The notes under the pieces were generated by a model. That model was not told the origin of the DNA, did no database searches, and worked only from the letters and a program-made list of their open reading frames with translations. A stretch of 64,000 nt of DNA, taken from positions 1 through 64,000 of the forward strand of contig JAGQUT010000007.1 of NCBI GenBank assembly GCA_020438355.1. The letters run 5' to 3'. This document shows positions 10,770-21,799 of this stretch, piece by piece. Source of the DNA: Solirubrobacterales bacterium (GTDB lineage: Bacteria > Actinomycetota > Thermoleophilia > Solirubrobacterales > 70-9). Positions within the stretch are counted from its first letter, which is position 1. Each line of letters begins with the position of its first letter. The position numbers and the translations under genes are program-made.

Positions 10770-10803
10770 GCGGACTGGATCGGCCCGCGAGCCGATTGCT
10801 CAG
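10766..10803. terminator. Nested hairpin shared by convergent stops
   Basis: CTGAGC (10766-10771) pairs with GCTCAG (10798-10803), and inside it ATCGGC pairs with GCCGAT. The structure overlaps the stop codons of both convergent genes; no T-tract, so a moderate terminator call. Confidence 0.45.
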
Positions 10804-11918
10804 TTCAGCTGTCCGGTCCTGAACCCGGTTGTTTCCACCGCGACCGTTTGGTTGCGGCCACTGTTCTTCGCCGTGTAGAGGGCCTGGTCGGCCCGGCTGA
10901 CCAGTTCTCGCACCGTTTCGGCGCCGTCCCATTCGGCGATGCCGGCCGAGCAGGTCACGGCATTGGCCACCTCGTCGCCGGGGTCTTCGGGCAGCGAGGT
11001 CCGAAGCCGCTCGACGATGGTTTTTGCTCCATCCAGATCCGTGTTTGGGAGGGTCAGCACGAACTCCTCACCGCCGTAACGGGCGATGTGGTCCTCGATC
11101 CGGGTCATTTCCTCCCAGTTCAGGGCGATGCGCCGCAGAAAGTCGTCACCGGCCTGATGGCCCTTGGCATCGTTGTACTGCTTGAAGTAATCGAGGTCGA
11201 GCATCGCCAGGCAGAGCGGCTGTGAGTGCCGCCTGGCCTGACCAACCGAACGACGGATGGCCCTTTCCCATCCCCGGCGGTTGTCGATCCCGGTCAGGGC
11301 GTCGGTCAGAGCCAGCTCTTCGATGATGCGCCCCCGCTCTTCGGCGAGGTTCCTTTCAAGGCGCATCCTGGTGACAAGATCCTGGATGACCACGCCGAGG
11401 ACCGTCGCCATCACGGCGAGCACAAGATCCTGTCGCCACACCGGGTTGAGCTCCACACCTTCCTCCGCCGTGGCGACCTGGGCGATTACTACAGCGGCCA
11501 CGACGCAGATGATCACGGTGATCAAGGCCCGCCTCGAACCGTAGACGGCGACGGCCAGCACCGGAATGAGGAGCAGCGGTCCGATTCCCGCTTCCAGTCC
11601 GTCGGTTCCACCACGCACCATGATCGCCCCGCCGAGGGCACCGAAAGGGGCGGCCAGCCAGAAGGAGGGATGGAGGAGGGCCACACCGACTCCCGCCAAT
11701 GCAAGAATCCACCCACCCAGGTACAGGGCCCAGTCGATTTCAGTCGATGAAATCAGGGTCACCGCGAAACAGACGGCTGTAATCAGGACGAACGCAATGC
11801 CATATCGGACCTGGTTATGCCGGTACTCCGTCACATCCTCATACCCCCGGTGGTTGGGGTGCATGCCGAATGGCCGGATTCTCAGGTTTTCGTACTTGAC
11901 GGTTCTCCCGTTCCTCAC
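10800..11918 (-). CDS. Membrane diguanylate cyclase (GGDEF)
   Basis: 372 aa. Residues about 38-180 hold five or six hydrophobic segments (a membrane sensor of no recognised type), then a short coiled linker and a GGDEF domain from about 200. The catalytic loop is GGEEF (282-286), preceded exactly five residues upstream by an RIED inhibitory I-site (273-276), so it should make c-di-GMP from two GTP and be product-inhibited. It is divergent from, and shares an 82-bp control region with, the operon whose glycosyltransferase carries a c-di-GMP-binding MshEN domain. The GTG at 11918 lacks a ribosome site and overlaps a TATAGG box; ATG 11864 is an alternative. Confidence 0.92.
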   Translation of the reverse strand: MRNGRTVKYENLRIRPFGMHPNHRGYEDVTEYRHNQVRYGIAFVLITAVCFAVTLISSTEIDWALYLGGWILALAGVGVALLHPSFWLAAPFGALGGAIMVRGGTDGLEAGIGPLLLIPVLAVAVYGSRRALITVIICVVAAVVIAQVATAEEGVELNPVWRQDLVLAVMATVLGVVIQDLVTRMRLERNLAEERGRIIEELALTDALTGIDNRRGWERAIRRSVGQARRHSQPLCLAMLDLDYFKQYNDAKGHQAGDDFLRRIALNWEEMTRIEDHIARYGGEEFVLTLPNTDLDGAKTIVERLRTSLPEDPGDEVANAVTCSAGIAEWDGAETVRELVSRADQALYTAKNSGRNQTVAVETTGFRTGQLN

Positions 11919-12000: not shown

Positions 12001-12534
12001 GTGGCCAAAGACCGTTCAAAAGAAATTCTCAAGGAAATCCGGAAGCTCAGGGAGGAAATGTCCGCCCGTCTCGACGCCCTCGAGGCTCGTGGTGGCGGCA
12101 GCCCTGTTCCGGTTCCCGGTTCTGGGCTAGAAGCTTCGACAGATCCCCACGGATCCCTTCCCGGGGTTCCCGTCAACAGCAGCGGGATCCCGATCAGCGA
12201 GCCCGCTCCGGTCGCCGAGAACTTCGAGTTGCCCACAGGAGGTGACGTCAGCGTCGTGGTTCGTCCCCTTCACGATCTGAGCCTGGCCCGGGTTGTCGAA
12301 GACGCGCTCTCAAACACCGAAGGTGTCGAGGAAGCGACTCTGCGCGAGCTTCGGGGTGACTCGGCCACCATCGACACAAAGGTTGATGAAGGCGTTTCCC
12401 TGATTTCCTCACTCCGTCGCAAGCTGCCGGTGGCATTTGACGTGACCGAGTCCTCCAGCGACTCGGTGACGATCGCACTGGCCCAACCGATGGGCGGGCG
12501 CGAGAGCGGCGTGGCCGCTCCCTCAGGCCTGTGA
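12001..12534 (+). CDS. Coiled-coil cytoplasmic protein, first gene of polysaccharide operon
   Basis: 177 aa, GTG start with GGGAG 4 bases before it. Residues 1-32 are a charged helix (ILKEIRKLREEMSARLDALEA), 33-78 a Gly/Pro/Ser linker, and about 82-162 a compact alpha/beta domain (VSVVVRPLHDLSLARVVEDAL ... SLRRKLPVAFDV). The protein at 21338-21799 has the same three-part layout and matching motifs, so they are paralogues. The C-terminal domain resembles small ligand- or partner-binding alpha/beta domains but I cannot name a family. Its stop overlaps the next start. It could be a scaffold for the glycosyltransferase complex (inference). Confidence 0.7.
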   Translation: MAKDRSKEILKEIRKLREEMSARLDALEARGGGSPVPVPGSGLEASTDPHGSLPGVPVNSSGIPISEPAPVAENFELPTGGDVSVVVRPLHDLSLARVVEDALSNTEGVEEATLRELRGDSATIDTKVDEGVSLISSLRRKLPVAFDVTESSSDSVTIALAQPMGGRESGVAAPSGL

Positions 12535-12800
12535 ACAACAGCGGCGGCGTATTCGGCGCGCTGATCTTCGTGATCGGCATACTCATCGCTTTTGCGCTGC
12601 TCTTCGGCTTTTTCCTGATCGTCCCGTTCTTCGTTTTCCTCGGCGGCATCATCTGGATGCTCGTCAGTGATCGCAAACGCGGCAACGGTGACGAGAGCAA
12701 CGGGAGCGGGAACGGGAGCGGTTCCACCGTCACCGCGACCGAGACCGAAACCGTGCAGACGGTCGAGACCACCACGGCAGTCCGCGAGGTCAACTCCTGA
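12531..12800 (+). CDS. Small two-helix membrane protein
   Basis: 89 aa, GTG start overlapping the previous stop. Residues about 7-47 are two closely spaced hydrophobic helices (FGALIFVIGILIAFALLFG, FLIVPFFVFLGGIIWMLV), then a basic turn (SDRKRG) and a 40-residue Gly/Ser/Thr-rich tail. Small membrane proteins of this sort often accompany polysaccharide synthases as accessory subunits. No family is recognised. Its stop overlaps the start of the glycosyltransferase gene (TGATG), so the two are probably made in fixed ratio. Confidence 0.7.
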   Translation: MNNSGGVFGALIFVIGILIAFALLFGFFLIVPFFVFLGGIIWMLVSDRKRGNGDESNGSGNGSGSTVTATETETVQTVETTTAVREVNS

Positions 12801-15019
12801 TGGTCACCTCGGTTGCCCAGCGCCTGCTTGTTCGTGACTCCACACACGGGGTCAGCGAGCGAATGGTCACGCTCAGCTCGGCGGTCGCGCACCTGCTGCC
12901 GGTCGAGATCTGCAGGCAGTACCACATAATTCCGATCGAATTCGACCGTGGCCTGCTGACCATGGCCGGCCCGCTCGTGTTCAACCCGGCCGCCGATCGA
13001 GCCGTACGCGAACAGACCGGTTACGAGACCCGGTGGCTTTTCGCCGACCAGACCGAGCTCGACCTGGCGATCGACAGGTTGTTCGCCGGCAACGGCAGGC
13101 CCGAAGGTGCCCAGTTCTCCGCCGAAGATCTCCTCAAGCACGGTCTCGCGGTTCCCCCTCGGCTCGGCGAGAGCCTCGCCAGCCAGGGCCTGGTGACTGA
13201 GGAACAGCTTGCGGAAGCGGTGGCCGAGCAGAACCGCACCGGCAGTCGCATCGGTGAAGTGCTGGTCCACGGTGGCGCCGTCGAGGAAACCGAGCTCCTG
13301 AGAGTCCTTTCAGAGCAGATGGACCTGCCGACCGTCGACCTTTCCGATTTTCACGCAGACAAGGCCCCGAGGGACGTCCTGCCCGATGAGATGTGTCACC
13401 GACTCCATTGCGTGCCGATCGCCATTGACGGGGAGAGCATCTACCTCGCCGTGGCTGACCGTCTGGACGAGGGTGAAGCTGAAGTAGAGAGTTACTCAGG
13501 GCGCAAAGTCCAGCAGTTCCTTGCCACCCCGAACCAGATATCCAGACTCCAGCGCGAAATCAACCGCGAGCGCTACACGGAGACGGCCACGCTTGGCCTG
13601 AAGGAGAAGTTCCCGGACAGTTCTGCCCATCAGGTCCTGAGCGGAGGCCAGAAGGTCTTTCTCGTCGTCCTGCTTCTGGTTTTCCTCGGATTCCTCATCT
13701 GGAATCCGATTCCGACCATGGCGACCGTGTTCGCGCTTCTCGCGATCTTCTACACCCTTACTTCCGCCTACCGGCTGATTGCCGGTTACGCCGCCCTCGG
13801 TCACCGCTATCTGGTCGACACCAGCGACGACGTCCTCGAGGCCATGGATGAGCGCGATCTGCCCGTCTACACGGTTCTGGTGCCGCTCTTCCGCGAGGCA
13901 GCGGTCATTCCGTACCTCGTCGCCGGTATCGAGTCCCTCGACTACCCGAAGACCAAGCTTGACGTGCGCCTCCTTTGCGAGGAAGACGACGAGGAAACGA
14001 TCGAGGCCATCATGGATCTCGACCTTCCTCCGCACTTCAACGCGATCATCGTGCCCCCGTCGCAGCCCCAGACCAAGCCGAAAGCATGCAATTTCGGCCT
14101 GCTCGGCGCCAAGGGCGAGTACGTGGTCATCTACGACGCCGAGGACCGCCCGGACCCGCTTCAGCTGAAGAAGGCCGTCCACATGTTCCGGAACCTCGAT
14201 GACTCGATCGTCTGCATCCAGTCGAAGCTCAACTTCTTCAACCAGCAGACAAACCTCCTCACCCGTTGGTTCTCGATCGAGTACTCGATGCTCTTCGACC
14301 TTGTCCTGCCCGGCCTTGACGCACGGAGGGATCCGATTCCGCTGGGTGGCACCTCGAACCACATCAAGCGGGAAGAACTGGTCGAGGTCGGTGGCTGGGA
14401 CCCCTTCAACGTGACCGAGGACGCCGATCTCGGCGTCCGTCTGCATCAGGCCGGTTTCCGGACCACGATGATGGACTCGACCACCTACGAGGAAGCGAAC
14501 ACGAACGTGGGGAACTGGGTTCGCCAGCGTTCCCGGTGGATCAAGGGTTATCTGCAGACCTGGCTGGTCTACATGCGCAACCCGTTCCGGTTCCTCTCCA
14601 ACGTCGGACTGAAGGGCTTCCTTTCCTTCCAGCTCCTGGTCGGCGGCACCTTCACCTTCCTCATCAACCCGATCTTCTGGTTCCTGACCACGGTCTTCGC
14701 CCTGACCCAGCTTGGAATCATCCAGGACTTCTTCCCCGGCTGGGTCTACTTCCTCGCCGCATCACAACTCTTCTTCGGCAACTTCGTCTTCGTCTACCTC
14801 GGTCTGGCAGCCTCGGTTCGCCGGGGCGACTACAGCCTCGCTCCGTACGCGCTTTTCCTGCCCTTCTACTGGGGACTGATGTCAGTCGCAGCCTGGAAGG
14901 GCTTCGGCCAGCTTGTCACCAACCCGTTCTACTGGGAGAAGACCGAACACGGTCTCGATCTCGGTGGTGGCGCGGAACATGCCCACTCGACCACTCCGCG
15001 TAAGTCTGGAGCCGCCTGA
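12800..15019 (+). CDS. c-di-GMP-binding (MshEN) family 2 processive-type glycosyltransferase
   Basis: 739 aa. N-terminus: GspE_N-like half-domain (about 23-95), then a canonical MshEN domain with two 24-residue motifs, 121-144 (RLGESLASQG...) and 150-173 (RIGEVLVHGG...), separated by the standard 5-residue spacer, then a second GspE_N half (177-258). MshEN binds c-di-GMP in MshE and in the NfrB glycosyltransferase. Two membrane helices (286-330) lead to a GT2 domain with EEDD (394-397), DAED (446-449), TED (539-541) and QRSRW (576-580), the D,D,D,QxxRW set of cellulose-synthase-like enzymes. Three or more C-terminal helices follow. It probably polymerises and extrudes a polysaccharide on c-di-GMP signal. 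Sugar unknown. Confidence 0.88.
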   Translation: MVTSVAQRLLVRDSTHGVSERMVTLSSAVAHLLPVEICRQYHIIPIEFDRGLLTMAGPLVFNPAADRAVREQTGYETRWLFADQTELDLAIDRLFAGNGRPEGAQFSAEDLLKHGLAVPPRLGESLASQGLVTEEQLAEAVAEQNRTGSRIGEVLVHGGAVEETELLRVLSEQMDLPTVDLSDFHADKAPRDVLPDEMCHRLHCVPIAIDGESIYLAVADRLDEGEAEVESYSGRKVQQFLATPNQISRLQREINRERYTETATLGLKEKFPDSSAHQVLSGGQKVFLVVLLLVFLGFLIWNPIPTMATVFALLAIFYTLTSAYRLIAGYAALGHRYLVDTSDDVLEAMDERDLPVYTVLVPLFREAAVIPYLVAGIESLDYPKTKLDVRLLCEEDDEETIEAIMDLDLPPHFNAIIVPPSQPQTKPKACNFGLLGAKGEYVVIYDAEDRPDPLQLKKAVHMFRNLDDSIVCIQSKLNFFNQQTNLLTRWFSIEYSMLFDLVLPGLDARRDPIPLGGTSNHIKREELVEVGGWDPFNVTEDADLGVRLHQAGFRTTMMDSTTYEEANTNVGNWVRQRSRWIKGYLQTWLVYMRNPFRFLSNVGLKGFLSFQLLVGGTFTFLINPIFWFLTTVFALTQLGIIQDFFPGWVYFLAASQLFFGNFVFVYLGLAASVRRGDYSLAPYALFLPFYWGLMSVAAWKGFGQLVTNPFYWEKTEHGLDLGGGAEHAHSTTPRKSGAA

Positions 15020-16941
15020 TGGCTAACGGTCGAATGCAGAGCATGGCCAATGGCGGGTCTACCGTTGTCGAGAAGACTCAGACTAGGCGCCGGGTAACCA
15101 GCAAGTACATCGACCCCGAGGTCGCTTCGCACATCAGCGAGGTGCCTCCGGAGCCGAGGCCGTTCAGTCCTGACGCACCAAGGGCCGGCCTCGAGAGCGG
15201 CCTCATCTTTGTATTTTTCGCGATCGTTTATGGCGTTCTCGGCTACTTCACGTTGACCGAAGGCCGGATCGTCGACTTCGTTTCTCTCAGTCACCTGAAC
15301 GAGGCTTACATGGTGCTGTGGAACGATCCGCCGAGACTGGCTGCTGTTGGTCTCGATGCCGGAGCGTTCAGTTCGATCCTCTATTTCCCGTTCTCGGTGG
15401 TGAAGCCGGTCGCCACCTCGCTTGTGGCCCTGCCGGTGATGAGCGCCCTTGCCGCGGCCCTTCTGATGGCTTCTCTGAACACGCTGATGCGGGTCTGCGA
15501 CATCAACCTCGTCTTCCGGATCATCCTCCTGGTGCTCTTCGGCCTGAATCCTCTTTTTGCCTTCTACGCCGGAAACGGCGACCCCGCGATGCTTGGTCTC
15601 GTCCTGCTGGGCGTGGCGATGACCTCGACCATTTCCTGGGCGGCCACAGACCAGACGAGACACCTTGCCGGAGCGGGTCTGGCGATGGGCCTGGCCGTGA
15701 TGGTCGATTACGGCTTCATCCTCGTCGGGGTCGGCTTCATGCTCGCCTTCATGGTGATCAGCGTCCAGAAGAAGGACGTCGGGCTCAAGGTCCGTTCGAC
15801 CCTGCTGCTGTTCCTGACCCCGCTGGTCTATGCGTTGCTCTTCTGGTGCCTGATGAACTGGGTCCTGCTGGGCAACCCGTTCGAATGGGTCACCGCCCAG
15901 AACGGAGTCATCCAGGTCAACACGACTGGTGTTCTGGATTCCCTCGGAACCGACTTTGGTGGCAGCATGGGGGATCTCTTCGAGGTCACGTTGGGAGTGG
16001 CCCCGCTGGCTTTCGTCGCCGCGATCATGCTGATCATTGGCTCGATAGCCAAGAAGGATGTGACCGGATGGGGCCTGCTCTTCGTCGGTCTATGCATCGC
16101 AGCTGCTCCGGTGATCCGCTCGGTCGGAGCCGATCAGGCGAACCTCTTCAATCTGGCCTACGGTCTTCCGCTGGCGGTGTTTGCGGTCGGGGCCGTCGCC
16201 TGGTTCGGAAAGGGCGCCTGGAGCCCGATCGCCGCGGCGATCATCGGGATCGGCCTGATTGCCGCCATTCCTCTTTCCTGGAACGCGATGCAGGACTACC
16301 GCTTCCAGAACCAGGCACAGGCCTTCACGCGCTGGGTCGAAGGCTGGAACTCCCAGGAGGGCAAGAGCTCGCTCGGTGACTACACCGTCGGCATTGATCC
16401 TGAACTGGCGATGGCCAACTACATCAACAACGAGATTCCCCAGAAATCAAGGTCGATCCTCGTTGACGAGAACTTCAGTTATGGCGTGATGATCACCTCC
16501 GGTCGTCCGGCCAACTTCTACGATCGCGCCGACGAGGGCGAGGATGACTGGCAGGCTGCCATCGACAATCCGTTCGGTGAGGTCAGCTACATGCTGATAA
16601 CGGTCAGCCGTGCCGGTGACCAGATCGCCAAGAAGTGGCCCACCGCAGTCGAGGGAGGACAGGCCGGAATGAGGCCGATCTTCCGGACCGACCGGTACGT
16701 GCTGGTCCAGGTTTCAGAGACCGCGCCGCCCACCGGTGACCGGGACACGGACACCAACACCCCCAGCAACACGCCCAATCCGGTCACCCCGTCGTCGCCG
16801 ATCAACCCGAACGGGCCCAGCCTGACCACGCCTTCACAGACCCAGACCGACGTCACCCCGACCTCGCCGGTGTCGCCGGCCCCCAATACCGTCGAGCCGA
16901 ACGATGGAACCTCCTCCGCACCCGCCCTGGAGGGTGAATAG
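15019..16941 (+). CDS. GT-C-like polytopic membrane protein with extracytoplasmic C-terminal domain
   Basis: 640 aa. A cytoplasmic 55-residue N-terminus is followed by about ten hydrophobic helices (60-430), a soluble domain (about 435-570) and a Pro/Thr/Ser-rich tail. The arrangement, including an acidic residue in the first external loop (LSHLNEAYMVL), resembles lipid-linked-sugar-dependent GT-C enzymes of the PMT/ArnT type, though the usual Asp-Glu pair is not clear. It could add side sugars to the polymer or transfer it to an acceptor (inference). Start and stop overlap both neighbours. Confidence 0.6.
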   Translation: MANGRMQSMANGGSTVVEKTQTRRRVTSKYIDPEVASHISEVPPEPRPFSPDAPRAGLESGLIFVFFAIVYGVLGYFTLTEGRIVDFVSLSHLNEAYMVLWNDPPRLAAVGLDAGAFSSILYFPFSVVKPVATSLVALPVMSALAAALLMASLNTLMRVCDINLVFRIILLVLFGLNPLFAFYAGNGDPAMLGLVLLGVAMTSTISWAATDQTRHLAGAGLAMGLAVMVDYGFILVGVGFMLAFMVISVQKKDVGLKVRSTLLLFLTPLVYALLFWCLMNWVLLGNPFEWVTAQNGVIQVNTTGVLDSLGTDFGGSMGDLFEVTLGVAPLAFVAAIMLIIGSIAKKDVTGWGLLFVGLCIAAAPVIRSVGADQANLFNLAYGLPLAVFAVGAVAWFGKGAWSPIAAAIIGIGLIAAIPLSWNAMQDYRFQNQAQAFTRWVEGWNSQEGKSSLGDYTVGIDPELAMANYINNEIPQKSRSILVDENFSYGVMITSGRPANFYDRADEGEDDWQAAIDNPFGEVSYMLITVSRAGDQIAKKWPTAVEGGQAGMRPIFRTDRYVLVQVSETAPPTGDRDTDTNTPSNTPNPVTPSSPINPNGPSLTTPSQTQTDVTPTSPVSPAPNTVEPNDGTSSAPALEGE

Positions 16942-18209
16942 TGCCTGAAGGCAGGATGCCCCGCTGGGTCCTCGTGATCGGCCTCTCGGCGTTGCTCGGG
17001 TTGCTGGTTGCTGCCTGTGGGTCCAACGACGACGCGGGCAACAACGACACGAATACCGCGGCGAATGCGACTGGAGCCACGGGCGCTACGTCCGGGGGAG
17101 TCAATGCGACTACGGGGAGCACCGAACCTGGAACGGGCGCGGCGGTGACGGCCGGCACGGATCCGGTCGATTCCGGTCGACTCTTCTCGGCTGACAGTCC
17201 CTGGAACACCACTGTTGAGGGACTTCCCGTGGCGGAGAATTCCGACCGGATGCTCGAGCTCGCAACCGAGCGGAAAGCCGCCCGTGAAGAGCCGGGACAG
17301 GAAGGCGTGGTCACCTTCACTCGTCAGATCGTCAACGAAGGCCTGTTCATAAACTCGAAGGTCTGGGCCCCTCTGATCGTCGCCGCCAACACCCCGGGTT
17401 CGGTGGCAACCAAGTTCGTCTGTCGCCAGTCGAAGTGCAGCTCGCCCGACCCCAAGGTGCCGGAGACGTTGACGATTCCGGCCAACACCACGCCGGACCC
17501 CCGTTTCGACGGCTGGCTCAGCGTTATCGACCGCGAGAACGGCATGGGATATGACTTCTGGCGTGCCCGCCGCGAAGGTGACGGCACGATCTCCTACCAG
17601 TTCGGCAAGGCCTGGACCCTTGACGGACCGGGTTTCAGCAAGCCGGTGGGCATCGACCCCGAGCGCGCCGTTGGCGCCAGAGGATCCGGCCTGCCTCTCT
17701 TCGCCGGTGTAATCGGTCCGGTCGAACTTGAAGCCGGCCAGATCAACCACGCTCTTGCGATCTCGGTGCCTGGCATCGCCCGTCGTAACTTCGTCCAGCC
17801 CGCCTCGGTTACCGACGGTGTCGGCAAGGAAAAGTCGCTCCCGGCCGGGGCCCGACTCAGGCTCAGGGCCGACGTCACAGTGAACGAGAAGGCACTCCGC
17901 AGCCTCAAGGGCCAGCGCCGCCGTTCGGCCGACGCAATCCTGACCGCCCTCAGGACGTATGGCGCGATCGTGGTTGACCGGGCGGCCGTCCCCAGCCTTT
18001 ACGCGCCCCTCGGGACCTCCTCGAAGATCCTGCGCGGCAGTGAGCTTTCATGGCTCAAGCTCAGCGACTTCGAAGTGATCACTCTGCCCCAGATCTACAA
18101 GGATCCGCCGCTCAGCAAGGTGGGCCTCGAAGGTCCCGAGACCGGCGGAGTAAACGAGCAGGTGCAGTCAGGTAGCGCCGCCGGAAACACCGTTGGAGGT
18201 GGACTGTGA
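16941..18209 (+). CDS. Secreted lipoprotein, possible carbohydrate-active domain
   Basis: 422 aa, GTG start sharing one base with the previous stop. Signal peptide with lipobox LLVAAC at about 21-26, then a 45-residue Asn/Thr/Gly linker and a globular domain (75-390). Motifs ENGMGYDFWRA, ARGSGLPLFAGVIGPVEL and GQINHALAISVPG recall a conserved secreted family found in actinobacteria and fungi, which I know only as uncharacterised. Placement in a glycosyltransferase operon suggests it binds or modifies the exported polysaccharide. No catalytic residues can be assigned. Confidence 0.6.
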   Translation: MPEGRMPRWVLVIGLSALLGLLVAACGSNDDAGNNDTNTAANATGATGATSGGVNATTGSTEPGTGAAVTAGTDPVDSGRLFSADSPWNTTVEGLPVAENSDRMLELATERKAAREEPGQEGVVTFTRQIVNEGLFINSKVWAPLIVAANTPGSVATKFVCRQSKCSSPDPKVPETLTIPANTTPDPRFDGWLSVIDRENGMGYDFWRARREGDGTISYQFGKAWTLDGPGFSKPVGIDPERAVGARGSGLPLFAGVIGPVELEAGQINHALAISVPGIARRNFVQPASVTDGVGKEKSLPAGARLRLRADVTVNEKALRSLKGQRRRSADAILTALRTYGAIVVDRAAVPSLYAPLGTSSKILRGSELSWLKLSDFEVITLPQIYKDPPLSKVGLEGPETGGVNEQVQSGSAAGNTVGGGL

Positions 18210-19627
18210 GGCAGCCCATGAAGAAGAAGGCTGCGGCCCTCATTTCCGCCTCGGCCGTACTCGGTCTACTGGTGGCTGGCTGTGGCCTCAACCCGGATGA
18301 CGCTCCGCCGTCTGCTGGCAGCAGCGGTGCCGGTGCAATCTACGTTCCACCGTCATCAGGCAAGACCCCGGTAGAAAGGGCCAAGCCCACCCCTCGCGAG
18401 GCCGGAACCATTCGCGTCGCAGGCAAGACCCAGGGTACTTTGACTCCGGACCTGATCAAGACCTACAACGCCACCGGCGGCACGGCGAACATCGTGGTGA
18501 GCGACAAGAACGAGAACCAGGCCTTCGAGCAGTTCTGCGCGGGGCAGGCTGACATCGTCGACTCCGCGCGTCCGATCTCCGAGGCCGAGTACCGGCAGTG
18601 CATCGCCAACGGCATCCAGCCGGTCCAGTTCCAGGTCGCTTCCGACGCGGCCGTCCTGGCGATCAAGAACGAGACCGACGTCGGCACCGACTGCCTCAGC
18701 TTCGAAGAGGTACGCGACATCTTCAGGGCAGGGTCGACCATCAACAGCTGGAGCCAGGTCGGTTACGGCCACGAACTCGGTGGAGACGCCAATGAACCCC
18801 GGATGAAGGTCGCTGGCCCGGACGAGGCCTCCAACGTGTTCGGCTTCTTCGGCCAGTACGTGCTCGGTGATCCCGAGCCGACCATCCTGGTCATGAGGAG
18901 CGACTATCAGGCCTACCCGACCGACGCCGGTGTTCGCCGCGCTGTGGTCGGTTCCAACAAGGACTTCAAGGCGGCAGAGCAGCTCGAGCGCTCGCGCCAG
19001 ATCTACCAGGACATTCTCGACTCTCTCGCCGAGAATCGCCGGGCTGTTCGTGATGCCGAGGCCGAGGTCGCCAAGGGCATCGTCGACGAGCGTCCGCCGG
19101 CCGATCAGGCTCGTGACCGCGCCAAACTCGCCAAGGCTGAAGCCAACCTCCGCAACCTCGAGAAGTCGCTGGCACCAGCCCGCCGGTACTTCCAGCAGAA
19201 CCGGGCCGCGCTTCGCCGTCTCGAAGAGGTCCGGGGGACAATGGGACTCTTCCGTTTCTCTTACTACGAGGCCTTCGAAGAGCAGCTGCGTCCGATGGAG
19301 GTGAGCGCCTCCAATGACTTCGCCAAGCCCGAGTGCGTCTTCCCCTCGCAGGCGACCGTCACCAACGCGACCTACCCGCTGGCCCGTCAGCTCCTGCTGA
19401 CGGTCAACTACCGAAACATGAAGGACCCGGACATCAACGAATTCCTGGTCCAGAGCCTTTCCCGCTCCCAGCGGCTGGCCGAGGATGCCGCGCTGGTTCC
19501 CCTGCCGGACGAGACCCAGGCCACCGAACTCGCATGGCTCAACGGCACCAGCGAACCGGACATCATCTTCTACCAGTCCGGTGCTGCCCCAGAGGTCGGA
19601 ACGAACCAGTCCGCCAGTGGCGAGTAG
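18206..19627 (+). CDS. PstS-like substrate-binding lipoprotein with coiled-coil insertion
   Basis: 473 aa, GTG start (GGAGG upstream) overlapping the previous stop. Lipobox LVAGC (C26). The type II binding-protein fold of phosphate-binding PstS is visible: GTIRVAGKTQGTLTP, FCAGQADIVDSARPIS, LSFEEVRDIF and GTMGLFRFSYYEAF. Between the last two, residues about 253-343 are a charged, heptad-rich insertion not found in PstS. No pstC/A/B or other permease lies nearby, so it is unlikely to be a transport subunit. It may be a surface sensor or structural part of the polysaccharide machine (inference). Confidence 0.75.
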   Translation: MRQPMKKKAAALISASAVLGLLVAGCGLNPDDAPPSAGSSGAGAIYVPPSSGKTPVERAKPTPREAGTIRVAGKTQGTLTPDLIKTYNATGGTANIVVSDKNENQAFEQFCAGQADIVDSARPISEAEYRQCIANGIQPVQFQVASDAAVLAIKNETDVGTDCLSFEEVRDIFRAGSTINSWSQVGYGHELGGDANEPRMKVAGPDEASNVFGFFGQYVLGDPEPTILVMRSDYQAYPTDAGVRRAVVGSNKDFKAAEQLERSRQIYQDILDSLAENRRAVRDAEAEVAKGIVDERPPADQARDRAKLAKAEANLRNLEKSLAPARRYFQQNRAALRRLEEVRGTMGLFRFSYYEAFEEQLRPMEVSASNDFAKPECVFPSQATVTNATYPLARQLLLTVNYRNMKDPDINEFLVQSLSRSQRLAEDAALVPLPDETQATELAWLNGTSEPDIIFYQSGAAPEVGTNQSASGE

Positions 19628-19700
19628 CCGCCAAGCCGTCATTTACCCTTAATCTGGCCGCTACTTGGCCTTGAAAGTCGGTTTAACGGGGGGTGACATC

Positions 19701-21308
19701 ATGTTTCCTGTGTTTCGGCGTCTAGCAACAGCTCTCGTTCTTCTCGGTCTGGGTTTCGCACTGGCCGCGATGCCGGCTGCCTCAAACGGCGCCAAGCGGC
19801 AGGGCCCCTGCTCGACACTGCCCATCAACATCAAGATGAGCACTCATGATCCGACAGGCCTGCTAGAGGACGGCTACGCCTGGATCTACGTGAATCCGAA
19901 GGGCAAGATCCGCTCGGCGATGGTCCGGGTGATGCGCGGAAACAGAACTTACGCTCGCGGGCGGATCGTCGGTCGGATGGCCTCTGGCAGGACCACGCTC
20001 GTGAGGATGCATGTGAATCAGCGCATGCTCTCGGGCAAGTACCGGATCAAGGTGACCGCCGGCAAGCCCGGAAAGTGTGGCCACCGGGTCAGCAAGTCGA
20101 GACCTTGGCGCTTCACCAGTCCGAGCCTCGGGCTCAAGGCGATTCCCGTCAGCACAAGGATTGGTGACAACGTCGATGTGGTCCGCTTCGCCCTGAGGCC
20201 GGTCCGCCGCACCAAGGTCGGTCGCACCAGGGTCTCCCTGATCGGTCCGGGCGGTGGCGTGATAAGCCAGCAGGTGATCAACTCGATCGGCAACAAGCAG
20301 ATCCTGGCCGAGCTTCCGATCAAAGGCAAACTGAAGGCTGCCAAGTACAGCGTCCGACTCAGCGGACAGGACCTGGCAACCGGCAACTACCGCGTGTCGA
20401 GCCAGTCGTGGCGATTCGGGAAGGGCGGCGGAGGCGCCAAGCCGGTGCCGACCACAGGTCAGCTCACCCAGAAGATCGCGGTTGACTGGACCAACGGCAA
20501 GTGGGAAGAGCGCCAGGTGGGCGGATTCATCGCCCCCGGCATCGGATACGGCGAGGTCGTCTGCAGCCCATACCAGCAATGGGTGCGCTTCTACCCCTCG
20601 GATGCCGGTCGCGAGAGCGCAATGATGACCTGGACCTACAAGAACTGGGACTTCAACAAGGGCTGGGAAAAGTCCGTGCGGGAAGCCAAATACTCGGAAG
20701 GAACCGGTCCCGACTTCCGCGAAGGCATGAACAAGTTCGGCCCGACCGAAAAGCACTCAACCGGCACTTTCCAGGGAATCATCTCCGACCGTGGCCCGAT
20801 CGACGGCCCCGGCGGAGTGGCCCTTGCGCCCCCGACTACTTTCGACCTGGACTGGGTCTGGGACTTCAACAAGGAAGGCAGCTCCTACTGCCATGTGAAG
20901 GCGACTTTCAGGACCCAGACCGATCAGCTGACCGACCCTCTGGCCCGTTCCGTCCAGATCGTCTGGCGTGGCGATGCCAACGCGACCCCGGCGAACACGG
21001 TCAGTGACGTCGACTTCCCCGGTCTCGGAAAGGTCCAGGCGATCTGCCAGGGCGGACCCAACGGATACCGTCGCCTGATCGTCGATTCAGCGATCGGGGG
21101 GAGCGTCTACACGCGCGAGGGTTCCGAGGACTACAAGGTCAGCCAGGCGAACGGTCCGCTGGTCATGAGGCTGCCGAACAACGGAATGCTTTTCGTCCAG
21201 ATGGACAACGGTGACCGCATTCTGGTCTCGTCCCGCTGGAAGGTGAACGACCCGGTTGCCTCGAACAACTGGTGCGTCGTTTCCGCCCAGGTCTACAGCC
21301 CTTCATAA
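19701..21308 (+). CDS. Secreted protein of unknown function, end of polysaccharide operon
   Basis: 535 aa from ATG 19701, which has GGGGGGTGA 4 bases upstream; the open frame begins at a TTG at 19665 without a ribosome site. Signal peptide (about 1-28, ending AMPAASNG). Residues 30-240 look like two beta-rich modules with many Arg/Lys (GKYRIKVTAG, KYSVRLSGQ); 255-535 is a Trp-rich beta domain (SPYQQWVRF, MMTWTYKNWDF). A possible TAATCT -10 box lies at 19650-19655, so it may have its own promoter. I do not recognise the family; a cell-wall or matrix protein is plausible. Confidence 0.65.
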   Translation: MFPVFRRLATALVLLGLGFALAAMPAASNGAKRQGPCSTLPINIKMSTHDPTGLLEDGYAWIYVNPKGKIRSAMVRVMRGNRTYARGRIVGRMASGRTTLVRMHVNQRMLSGKYRIKVTAGKPGKCGHRVSKSRPWRFTSPSLGLKAIPVSTRIGDNVDVVRFALRPVRRTKVGRTRVSLIGPGGGVISQQVINSIGNKQILAELPIKGKLKAAKYSVRLSGQDLATGNYRVSSQSWRFGKGGGGAKPVPTTGQLTQKIAVDWTNGKWEERQVGGFIAPGIGYGEVVCSPYQQWVRFYPSDAGRESAMMTWTYKNWDFNKGWEKSVREAKYSEGTGPDFREGMNKFGPTEKHSTGTFQGIISDRGPIDGPGGVALAPPTTFDLDWVWDFNKEGSSYCHVKATFRTQTDQLTDPLARSVQIVWRGDANATPANTVSDVDFPGLGKVQAICQGGPNGYRRLIVDSAIGGSVYTREGSEDYKVSQANGPLVMRLPNNGMLFVQMDNGDRILVSSRWKVNDPVASNNWCVVSAQVYSPS

Positions 21309-21337: not shown

Positions 21338-21799
21338 GTGGGCACAGATGCCGGAAAGACGGATGCCGCAGCAGTCGATGACCTTCGCGCCTCGGTGGGC
21401 CGGGTCAGCCTCGAAGTCCAGGCGCTGGCTGACCGCGTCCAGGAACTGATCGACGCGGTCGAGGCATTGGCCCCCGGGGGCAAGGCGGAACGCCCGGTGC
21501 CAGCCGCGTCTCCCGCCAGTGGCGAGATCGGAGTTAGCGTCTCCCCTTTGCCGGAGCTGGCGATGGCCGCTGTCGCCGAAACCGCACTCCGAGGCCTTCC
21601 CTCGGTGCGGAAGGTGGTCTCGGTAGAGCGTTCAAACAATCAGGCCACATTCGTGCTTGAAATCGAGGACGACACAGAGCTCGTCAGCGAGATGCGCCGG
21701 GCCATGCCGGTTCCGATCACCGTCGACACGGCCCCCGACGGATCCCTGAAGGTGGTTCTGGAGTGGGCCTGGGGAAGGTCCGCCGCCAGCGCCGGCTGA
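21338..21799 (+). CDS. Coiled-coil protein, paralogue of the operon's first gene
   Basis: 153 aa, GTG start fixed by a leaderless -10 box. N-terminal heptad helix (VDDLRASVGRVSLEVQALAD), Pro/Ala linker, and a C-terminal alpha/beta domain (VSVSPLPELAMAAVAETAL ... EMRRAMPVPITVD) matching the protein at 12001-12534 in order and motif spacing (V-PL-L--A-V---AL, then RR--P). The two bracket the polysaccharide operon. Function unknown; the shared domain may bind a common partner. Confidence 0.7.
   Translation: MGTDAGKTDAAAVDDLRASVGRVSLEVQALADRVQELIDAVEALAPGGKAERPVPAASPASGEIGVSVSPLPELAMAAVAETALRGLPSVRKVVSVERSNNQATFVLEIEDDTELVSEMRRAMPVPITVDTAPDGSLKVVLEWAWGRSAASAG

What the first reader, a model, noticed from the sequence alone, without database searches (positions are those of the whole stretch)
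12800..15019. MshEN c-di-GMP sensor fused to the N-terminus of a cellulose-synthase-like glycosyltransferase
Residues 121-144 and 150-173 fit the two 24-residue MshEN motifs with the exact 5-residue spacer, and the GT2 part has D,D,D,QxxRW. In E. coli NfrB the MshEN-type domain is C-terminal to the GT2 domain; here it is N-terminal and flanked by GspE_N halves, so allosteric coupling must use a different geometry.
Basis: partly seen in the sequence, partly recalled or inferred. Interest (0 to 1): 0.78.

Follow-up and report, generated by a model that had tools for sequence, protein, structure and literature searches.

The report
c-di-GMP-sensing polysaccharide synthase, widespread type
The gene encodes a membrane enzyme that probably makes a surface sugar polymer and carries an intact binding domain for the bacterial signal c-di-GMP at its front end; this layout is already known and common, but related species that cannot make the signal tend to have a decayed or missing sensor.

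Summary
ORF 12800-15019 (+, 739 aa) carries two 24-residue MshEN motifs at residues 121-144 and 150-173 with a 5-residue spacer. NCBIfam's c-di-GMP motif model covers exactly 121-173 (58.9 bits, cut-off 38), and the AlphaFold model matches MshE bound to c-di-GMP (5HTL, Z 17.8) over 119-255. The rest is a BcsA-like processive GT2. A further MshEN half lies at 24-97.

The novelty claim does not hold. Front-end MshEN-GT2 fusions occur in Actinomycetota, Bacillota, Bacteroidota, Alphaproteobacteria and others, and one (Sfz2) was published in 2021. "Must use a different geometry" is untested.

Key residues are kept in Solirubrobacterales (small losses in some genera) but decayed in Nocardioides, Mucilaginibacter and Erythrobacteraceae. 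Across 86 family members, all 21 in genomes without GGDEF domains have a decayed or missing sensor; 42 of 44 intact motifs sit in genomes with four or more. Only about four independent contrasts exist, so this is suggestive, not significant.

The genome has five GGDEF domains, no PilZ, and only this MshEN protein. The gene heads a conserved operon. Most likely: a c-di-GMP-activated exopolysaccharide synthase; binding and activation are inferred.

The parts
12800..15019 (+). MshEN-GT2 synthase ORF, 739 aa
   Evidence: relatives at about 37-91% identity over most of the length
12869..13090 (+). extra MshEN_C-like half (aa 24-97), with no 53-residue motif domain in front of it
   Evidence: Pfam PF05157 39.1 bits; helix/strand order like that of aa 196-254; weak similarity to 171-260, E 5e-5; mostly in Actinomycetota relatives
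13160..13231 (+). c-di-GMP motif 1 (aa 121-144)
   Evidence: NF053729 1-53/53, 58.9 bits; fits published consensus
13247..13318 (+). c-di-GMP motif 2 (aa 150-173)
   Evidence: as motif 1
13322..13567 (+). MshEN_C subdomain (aa 175-256)
   Evidence: Pfam PF05157 51.9 bits; model 119-255 on 5HTL chain B Z 17.8, rmsd 2.8, 137 residues
13655..13798 (+). transmembrane helices 1-2 (about aa 286-333) between sensor and catalytic domain
   Evidence: hydropathy, helices 282-301 and 303-333 in the model
13868..14548 (+). GT2 catalytic domain (aa 357-583): DAED 446-449, TED 539-541, QRSRW 576-580
   Evidence: Pfam GT2 families; BcsA Z 24-26; most of these residues invariant in 47 relatives
14921..14953 (+). 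C-terminal NPFYWEKTEHG, candidate gating segment
   Evidence: P709, W712, K714, T715, H717, G718 invariant in 47 relatives; gating role inferred by analogy
10800..11918 (-). membrane diguanylate cyclase (GGEEF, RIED I-site), divergent neighbour
   Evidence: GGDEF 141 bits; active-site motif; found beside the synthase only in close Solirubrobacterales relatives
15019..16941 (+). polytopic membrane protein, next gene of the operon, possibly GT-C-like
   Evidence: same place in Actinomycetota, near the synthase also in Bacillota and Kryptonia; weak PMT_2 in 2 of 29 members
16941..18209 (+). secreted or lipid-anchored conserved protein, operon
   Evidence: conserved in Actinomycetota operon; no Pfam, no PDB sequence match
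18206..19627 (+). PstS-like substrate-binding protein, operon
   Evidence: PBP_like_2 52.3 bits, conserved order
19665..21308 (+). secreted protein of unknown family, end of conserved block
   Evidence: conserved order in most relatives

Best explanation
This is a c-di-GMP-activated, membrane-embedded processive glycosyltransferase (GT2) that makes a secreted polysaccharide. Cytoplasmic c-di-GMP, possibly supplied in part by the membrane diguanylate cyclase encoded 900 bases upstream, binds the tandem 24-residue motifs. The binding changes the packing of the N-terminal MshEN module against the two membrane helices and the catalytic domain and switches the synthase on. Shown by sequence or model: motif, fold, catalytic signature, operon, presence of GGDEF and EAL/HD-GYP proteins in the genome. 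Inferred: ligand binding, direction of the switch, the polymer, the role of the neighbours.
For: Curated c-di-GMP motif model over its cut-off at exactly 121-173. Model of high confidence (pLDDT 88.7, pTM 0.81) with 119-255 on MshE plus c-di-GMP (Z 17.8) and the rest on BcsA and hyaluronan synthase. In 15 Thermoleophilia relatives the 16 key motif positions are 80% identical to the window against 47% in the rest of the 53 residues (permutation p 7e-5), with Gly123, Gly152 and Gln144 invariant. The genome has 5 GGDEF, 3 EAL and 1 HD-GYP matches, no PilZ, and this is its only MshEN protein. Motif state follows GGDEF content across the family: intact 0/2/42, degenerate 18/9/8, absent 3/2/2 in genomes with 0 / 1-3 / 4 or more GGDEF. 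Precedent: NfrB, whose MshEN binds c-di-GMP and is needed for its function in vivo (PMC8669469).
Against: No binding or activity data. The motif-GGDEF association rests on about four independent contrasts and does not reach significance; Erythrobacteraceae have a degenerate motif with 10-20 GGDEF domains. No exporter or polymer-specific gene identifies the product.
Confidence: 0.78

Rival explanations
1. The MshEN module is a structural or protein-docking domain and no longer binds c-di-GMP, as in XpsE of Xanthomonas; the synthase is constitutive or controlled otherwise.
For: Many relatives keep the module but have lost the binding residues (Nocardioides, Mucilaginibacter, Erythrobacteraceae), so the module can be kept without the ligand; XpsE precedent (PMC5013675).
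Against: In the window and its Solirubrobacterales relatives the ligand positions are selectively conserved and score over the curated cut-off.
Confidence: 0.12
2. The domain binds c-di-GMP but as a switch-off or localisation signal (for instance recruiting the synthase to a diguanylate cyclase or pole) rather than an activator.
For: Direction of control cannot be read from sequence; local DGC-effector pairs exist (NfrB-DgcJ, PMC8669469).
Against: The precedents for GT2 synthases with c-di-GMP-binding domains of their own (BcsA, NfrB, BgsA) are activation.
Confidence: 0.08

Closest known systems
Sfz2 of stalk-forming Zetaproteobacteria (xagB-like; PMC8250860)
   Same: N-terminal T2SSE_N/MshEN-type domain (IPR007831) plus C-terminal GT2 with DxD, TED, QxxRW
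   Different: described there as an EpsE-like translocation domain with other c-di-GMP motifs proposed; different operon and phylum
NfrB of E. coli (PMC8669469)
   Same: GT2 joined through two membrane helices to an MshEN domain; single MshEN protein of its genome
   Different: MshEN is C-terminal; GT2 part only 21% identical (E 9e-8) against 27% to BcsA (E 8e-18); the neighbours examined here include no evident NfrA or YbcH counterpart
BcsA cellulose synthase
   Same: GT2 fold and membrane layout (Z 24-26), c-di-GMP control
   Different: C-terminal PilZ instead of N-terminal MshEN; no recognised BcsB next door
MshE/PilB-type ATPases
   Same: MshEN module, 5HTL Z 17.8 over 137 residues
   Different: output is a secretion or pilus ATPase

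Membership tests
MshEN c-di-GMP receptor domain (PF05157 / NF053729) | two 24-residue motifs with 5-residue spacer | tested here: met
MshEN c-di-GMP receptor domain (PF05157 / NF053729) | four-helix MshEN_N plus alpha/beta MshEN_C fold | tested here: met
   model 119-255 on 5HTL chain B, Z 17.8, rmsd 2.8
MshEN c-di-GMP receptor domain (PF05157 / NF053729) | binds c-di-GMP | not testable with these tools
   needs ITC or DRaCALA
Processive GT2 (BcsA/HAS-like) synthase | catalytic Asp residues, TED, QxxRW and TM helices | tested here: met
   DxD site reads DAED
Bacterial cellulose synthase (TIGR03030 / BcsA) | equivalog score and PilZ domain | tested here: not met
   67.6 bits against cut-off 699; no PilZ match in the genome
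NfrB (NF008411) | GT2 followed by MshEN, equivalog score | tested here: not met
   60.9 bits against cut-off 1170, best stretch only over the MshEN part
N-terminal MshEN-GT2 fusion family | MshEN module in front of TM pair and GT2, aligned over about 600 residues | tested here: met

The most novel reading that the evidence does not exclude
The front-end MshEN module of this synthase family tracks c-di-GMP capacity: it is intact where diguanylate cyclases are plentiful, and decays to a fold without ligand residues, or is lost, where they are few or absent. In the window's genome it may be the main protein receptor for c-di-GMP.
Probability: 0.4. Interest if true: 0.45.

Novelty: new member of a known kind. 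Interest (0 to 1): 0.3.

Why it matters
It shows that c-di-GMP control of a polysaccharide synthase through an N-terminal MshEN module is probably a broad, little-studied theme in Actinomycetota, with a conserved operon whose polymer is unknown. The family contains intact, decayed and sensor-less versions of the same synthase, which makes the coupling between sensor and catalysis testable by comparison.

Tried and rejected
Phylogenetic test of motif state against GGDEF count: only 3-4 supported independent pairs, sign test not significant. Placing NfrB, BcsA and PgaC as outgroups in the GT tree gave saturated branches (length 10), so the origin of the two fusion orders was not resolved by tree; only pairwise scores are quoted. 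Structure of the operon protein 16941-18209: core modelled well, but no convincing PDB match (Foldseek best E 1.8; VIA-align best Z 3.6, MltA-like transglycosylases), a lead only. Profile searches of that protein and of 15019-16941 against PDB: nothing. Literature on Nocardioides or Solirubrobacter c-di-GMP polysaccharides: nothing found in the held library. Considered and rejected: chance motif (0 of 20,000 shuffles).

Full report
Observation. The ORF at 12800-15019 encodes 739 residues. Two MshEN motifs with the exact spacing lie at 121-144 and 150-173. NCBIfam's model of the c-di-GMP motif covers exactly these residues, full length, 58.9 bits against a cut-off of 38. Pfam finds two MshEN (PF05157) stretches, 24-97 and 175-256, so the layout is MshEN_C-like half, MshEN_N with the ligand motifs, MshEN_C, two membrane helices, GT2, then further membrane helices. 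A tandem relaxed motif with this spacing appeared in none of 20,000 shuffles. The GT2 part has DAED (446), TED (539) and QRSRW (576).

Structure. AlphaFold2 on 47 sequences gives pLDDT 88.7 and pTM 0.81. Residues 119-255 superpose on MshE with c-di-GMP (5HTL chain B) at Z 17.8, rmsd 2.8 over 137 residues; residues about 300-726 superpose on BcsA (Z 24-26), hyaluronan synthase and PcManGT (Z 28.7).

Distribution. A scan of one genome per species kept 80 loci: Solirubrobacterales, Patulibacter, Nocardioides, Paenibacillus, Sporolactobacillus, Kryptonia, Mucilaginibacter, Erythrobacteraceae, Syntrophobacterales and others, most of them aligned through the sensor region. In the window's class 26 of 299 sampled genomes carry a relative; in the phylum sample 24 of 396, some without the sensor; plasmid copies exist, for example in Geobacillus. 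The order N-terminal T2SSE_N plus GT2 was described for Sfz2 in 2021 (PMC8250860), and fusion of MshEN to glycosyltransferases was noted in the founding paper (PMC5013675). The architecture is therefore known and common.

In 15 Thermoleophilia relatives the 16 key positions are 80% identical to the window, against 47% for the other positions of the 53-residue unit (permutation p 7e-5, not corrected for relatedness), and Gly123, Gly152 and Gln144 are invariant. Patulibacter keeps 14 of 16. In Nocardioides only about 10 of 16 remain (R to Q or P, Q to Y, M or L), in Mucilaginibacter and Erythrobacteraceae about 6, and in some other Actinomycetota the module is missing altogether. So the positions are conserved in the window's lineage but not across the family. 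Nocardioides copies still pass the NCBIfam cut-off, so a pass of that model alone does not establish binding.

Link to c-di-GMP. GGDEF domains per genome were counted in 72 plus 20 genomes. Among 86 family members, intact motifs occur in 0 genomes without GGDEF, 2 with one to three and 42 with four or more; degenerate motifs in 18, 9 and 8; absent modules in 3, 2 and 2. The pattern fits decay of the sensor where the signal is not made. Relatedness leaves only about four independent contrasts and the sign test cannot reach significance; Erythrobacteraceae and two Actinomycetota genomes are exceptions. It is suggestive only. The threshold for 'intact' was 13 of 16 in the first count and 12 of 16 in the last; both were set by eye after the scores were seen.

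The window's genome. It has five GGDEF, three EAL and one HD-GYP match, no PilZ match and no other MshEN protein (one EAL match has a stop inside). Other receptor types (riboswitches, BldD- or RsiG-like proteins, degenerate GGDEF or EAL domains) were not tested, so it is the only receptor found of these two classes, not proven to be the only receptor. The assembly is 97% complete in 133 contigs.

Neighbourhood. The coding regions 12800-15019, 15019-16941, 16941-18209 and 18206-19627 overlap end to start by 1 to 4 bases, and the order synthase, membrane protein, secreted protein, PstS-like protein, secreted protein is kept across most Solirubrobacterales and Nocardioides loci, with a longer gap before the third gene in Nocardioides; the membrane protein lies near the synthase in Bacillota and Kryptonia too. 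This marks an envelope or exopolysaccharide operon of unknown product. A membrane diguanylate cyclase with intact GGEEF and RxxD sites lies divergently upstream and is kept there only in close relatives, where the other flanking genes are kept as well, so its link to the synthase is weak evidence.

Mechanism. Best explanation: c-di-GMP binds the N-terminal module and activates a BcsA-like synthase. Motif, fold and catalytic signature are shown; binding, activation and product are inferred. The C-terminal NPFYWEKTEHG stretch, invariant at P, W, K, T, H and G in 47 sequences, is a candidate gating segment by analogy with BcsA and hyaluronan synthase, from general knowledge.

Verdict. Correct observation, correct identification of the domain, over-stated novelty. 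New member of a known kind, with a modestly interesting evolutionary pattern.

Noticed in passing
12001-12534 and 21338-21799: Two small cytoplasmic proteins, before and after the conserved operon, are paralogues over 88 residues of their C-terminal halves (30% identity, E 1e-10); neither has a clear family.
   Followed up: partly
16941-18209: Conserved secreted protein of the operon (about 48 invariant residues in 32 relatives) has no Pfam match and no clear PDB fold; weak MltA-like hint (Z 3.6), possibly a polymer-acting enzyme.
   Followed up: partly
18206-19627: A PstS-like substrate-binding protein is a regular part of this polysaccharide-synthase operon in Solirubrobacterales and Nocardioides.
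   Followed up: no
L047, L048, L049, L051, L052: Paenibacillus and Sporolactobacillus homologues carry an additional tandem motif pair in front of the aligned one, so apparently two MshEN_N units in a row.
   Followed up: no
L098 and L110 (one genome, G186 contig C81): Two copies of the synthase about 10 kb apart, with a GGDEF gene about 2 kb beyond one of them.
   Followed up: no
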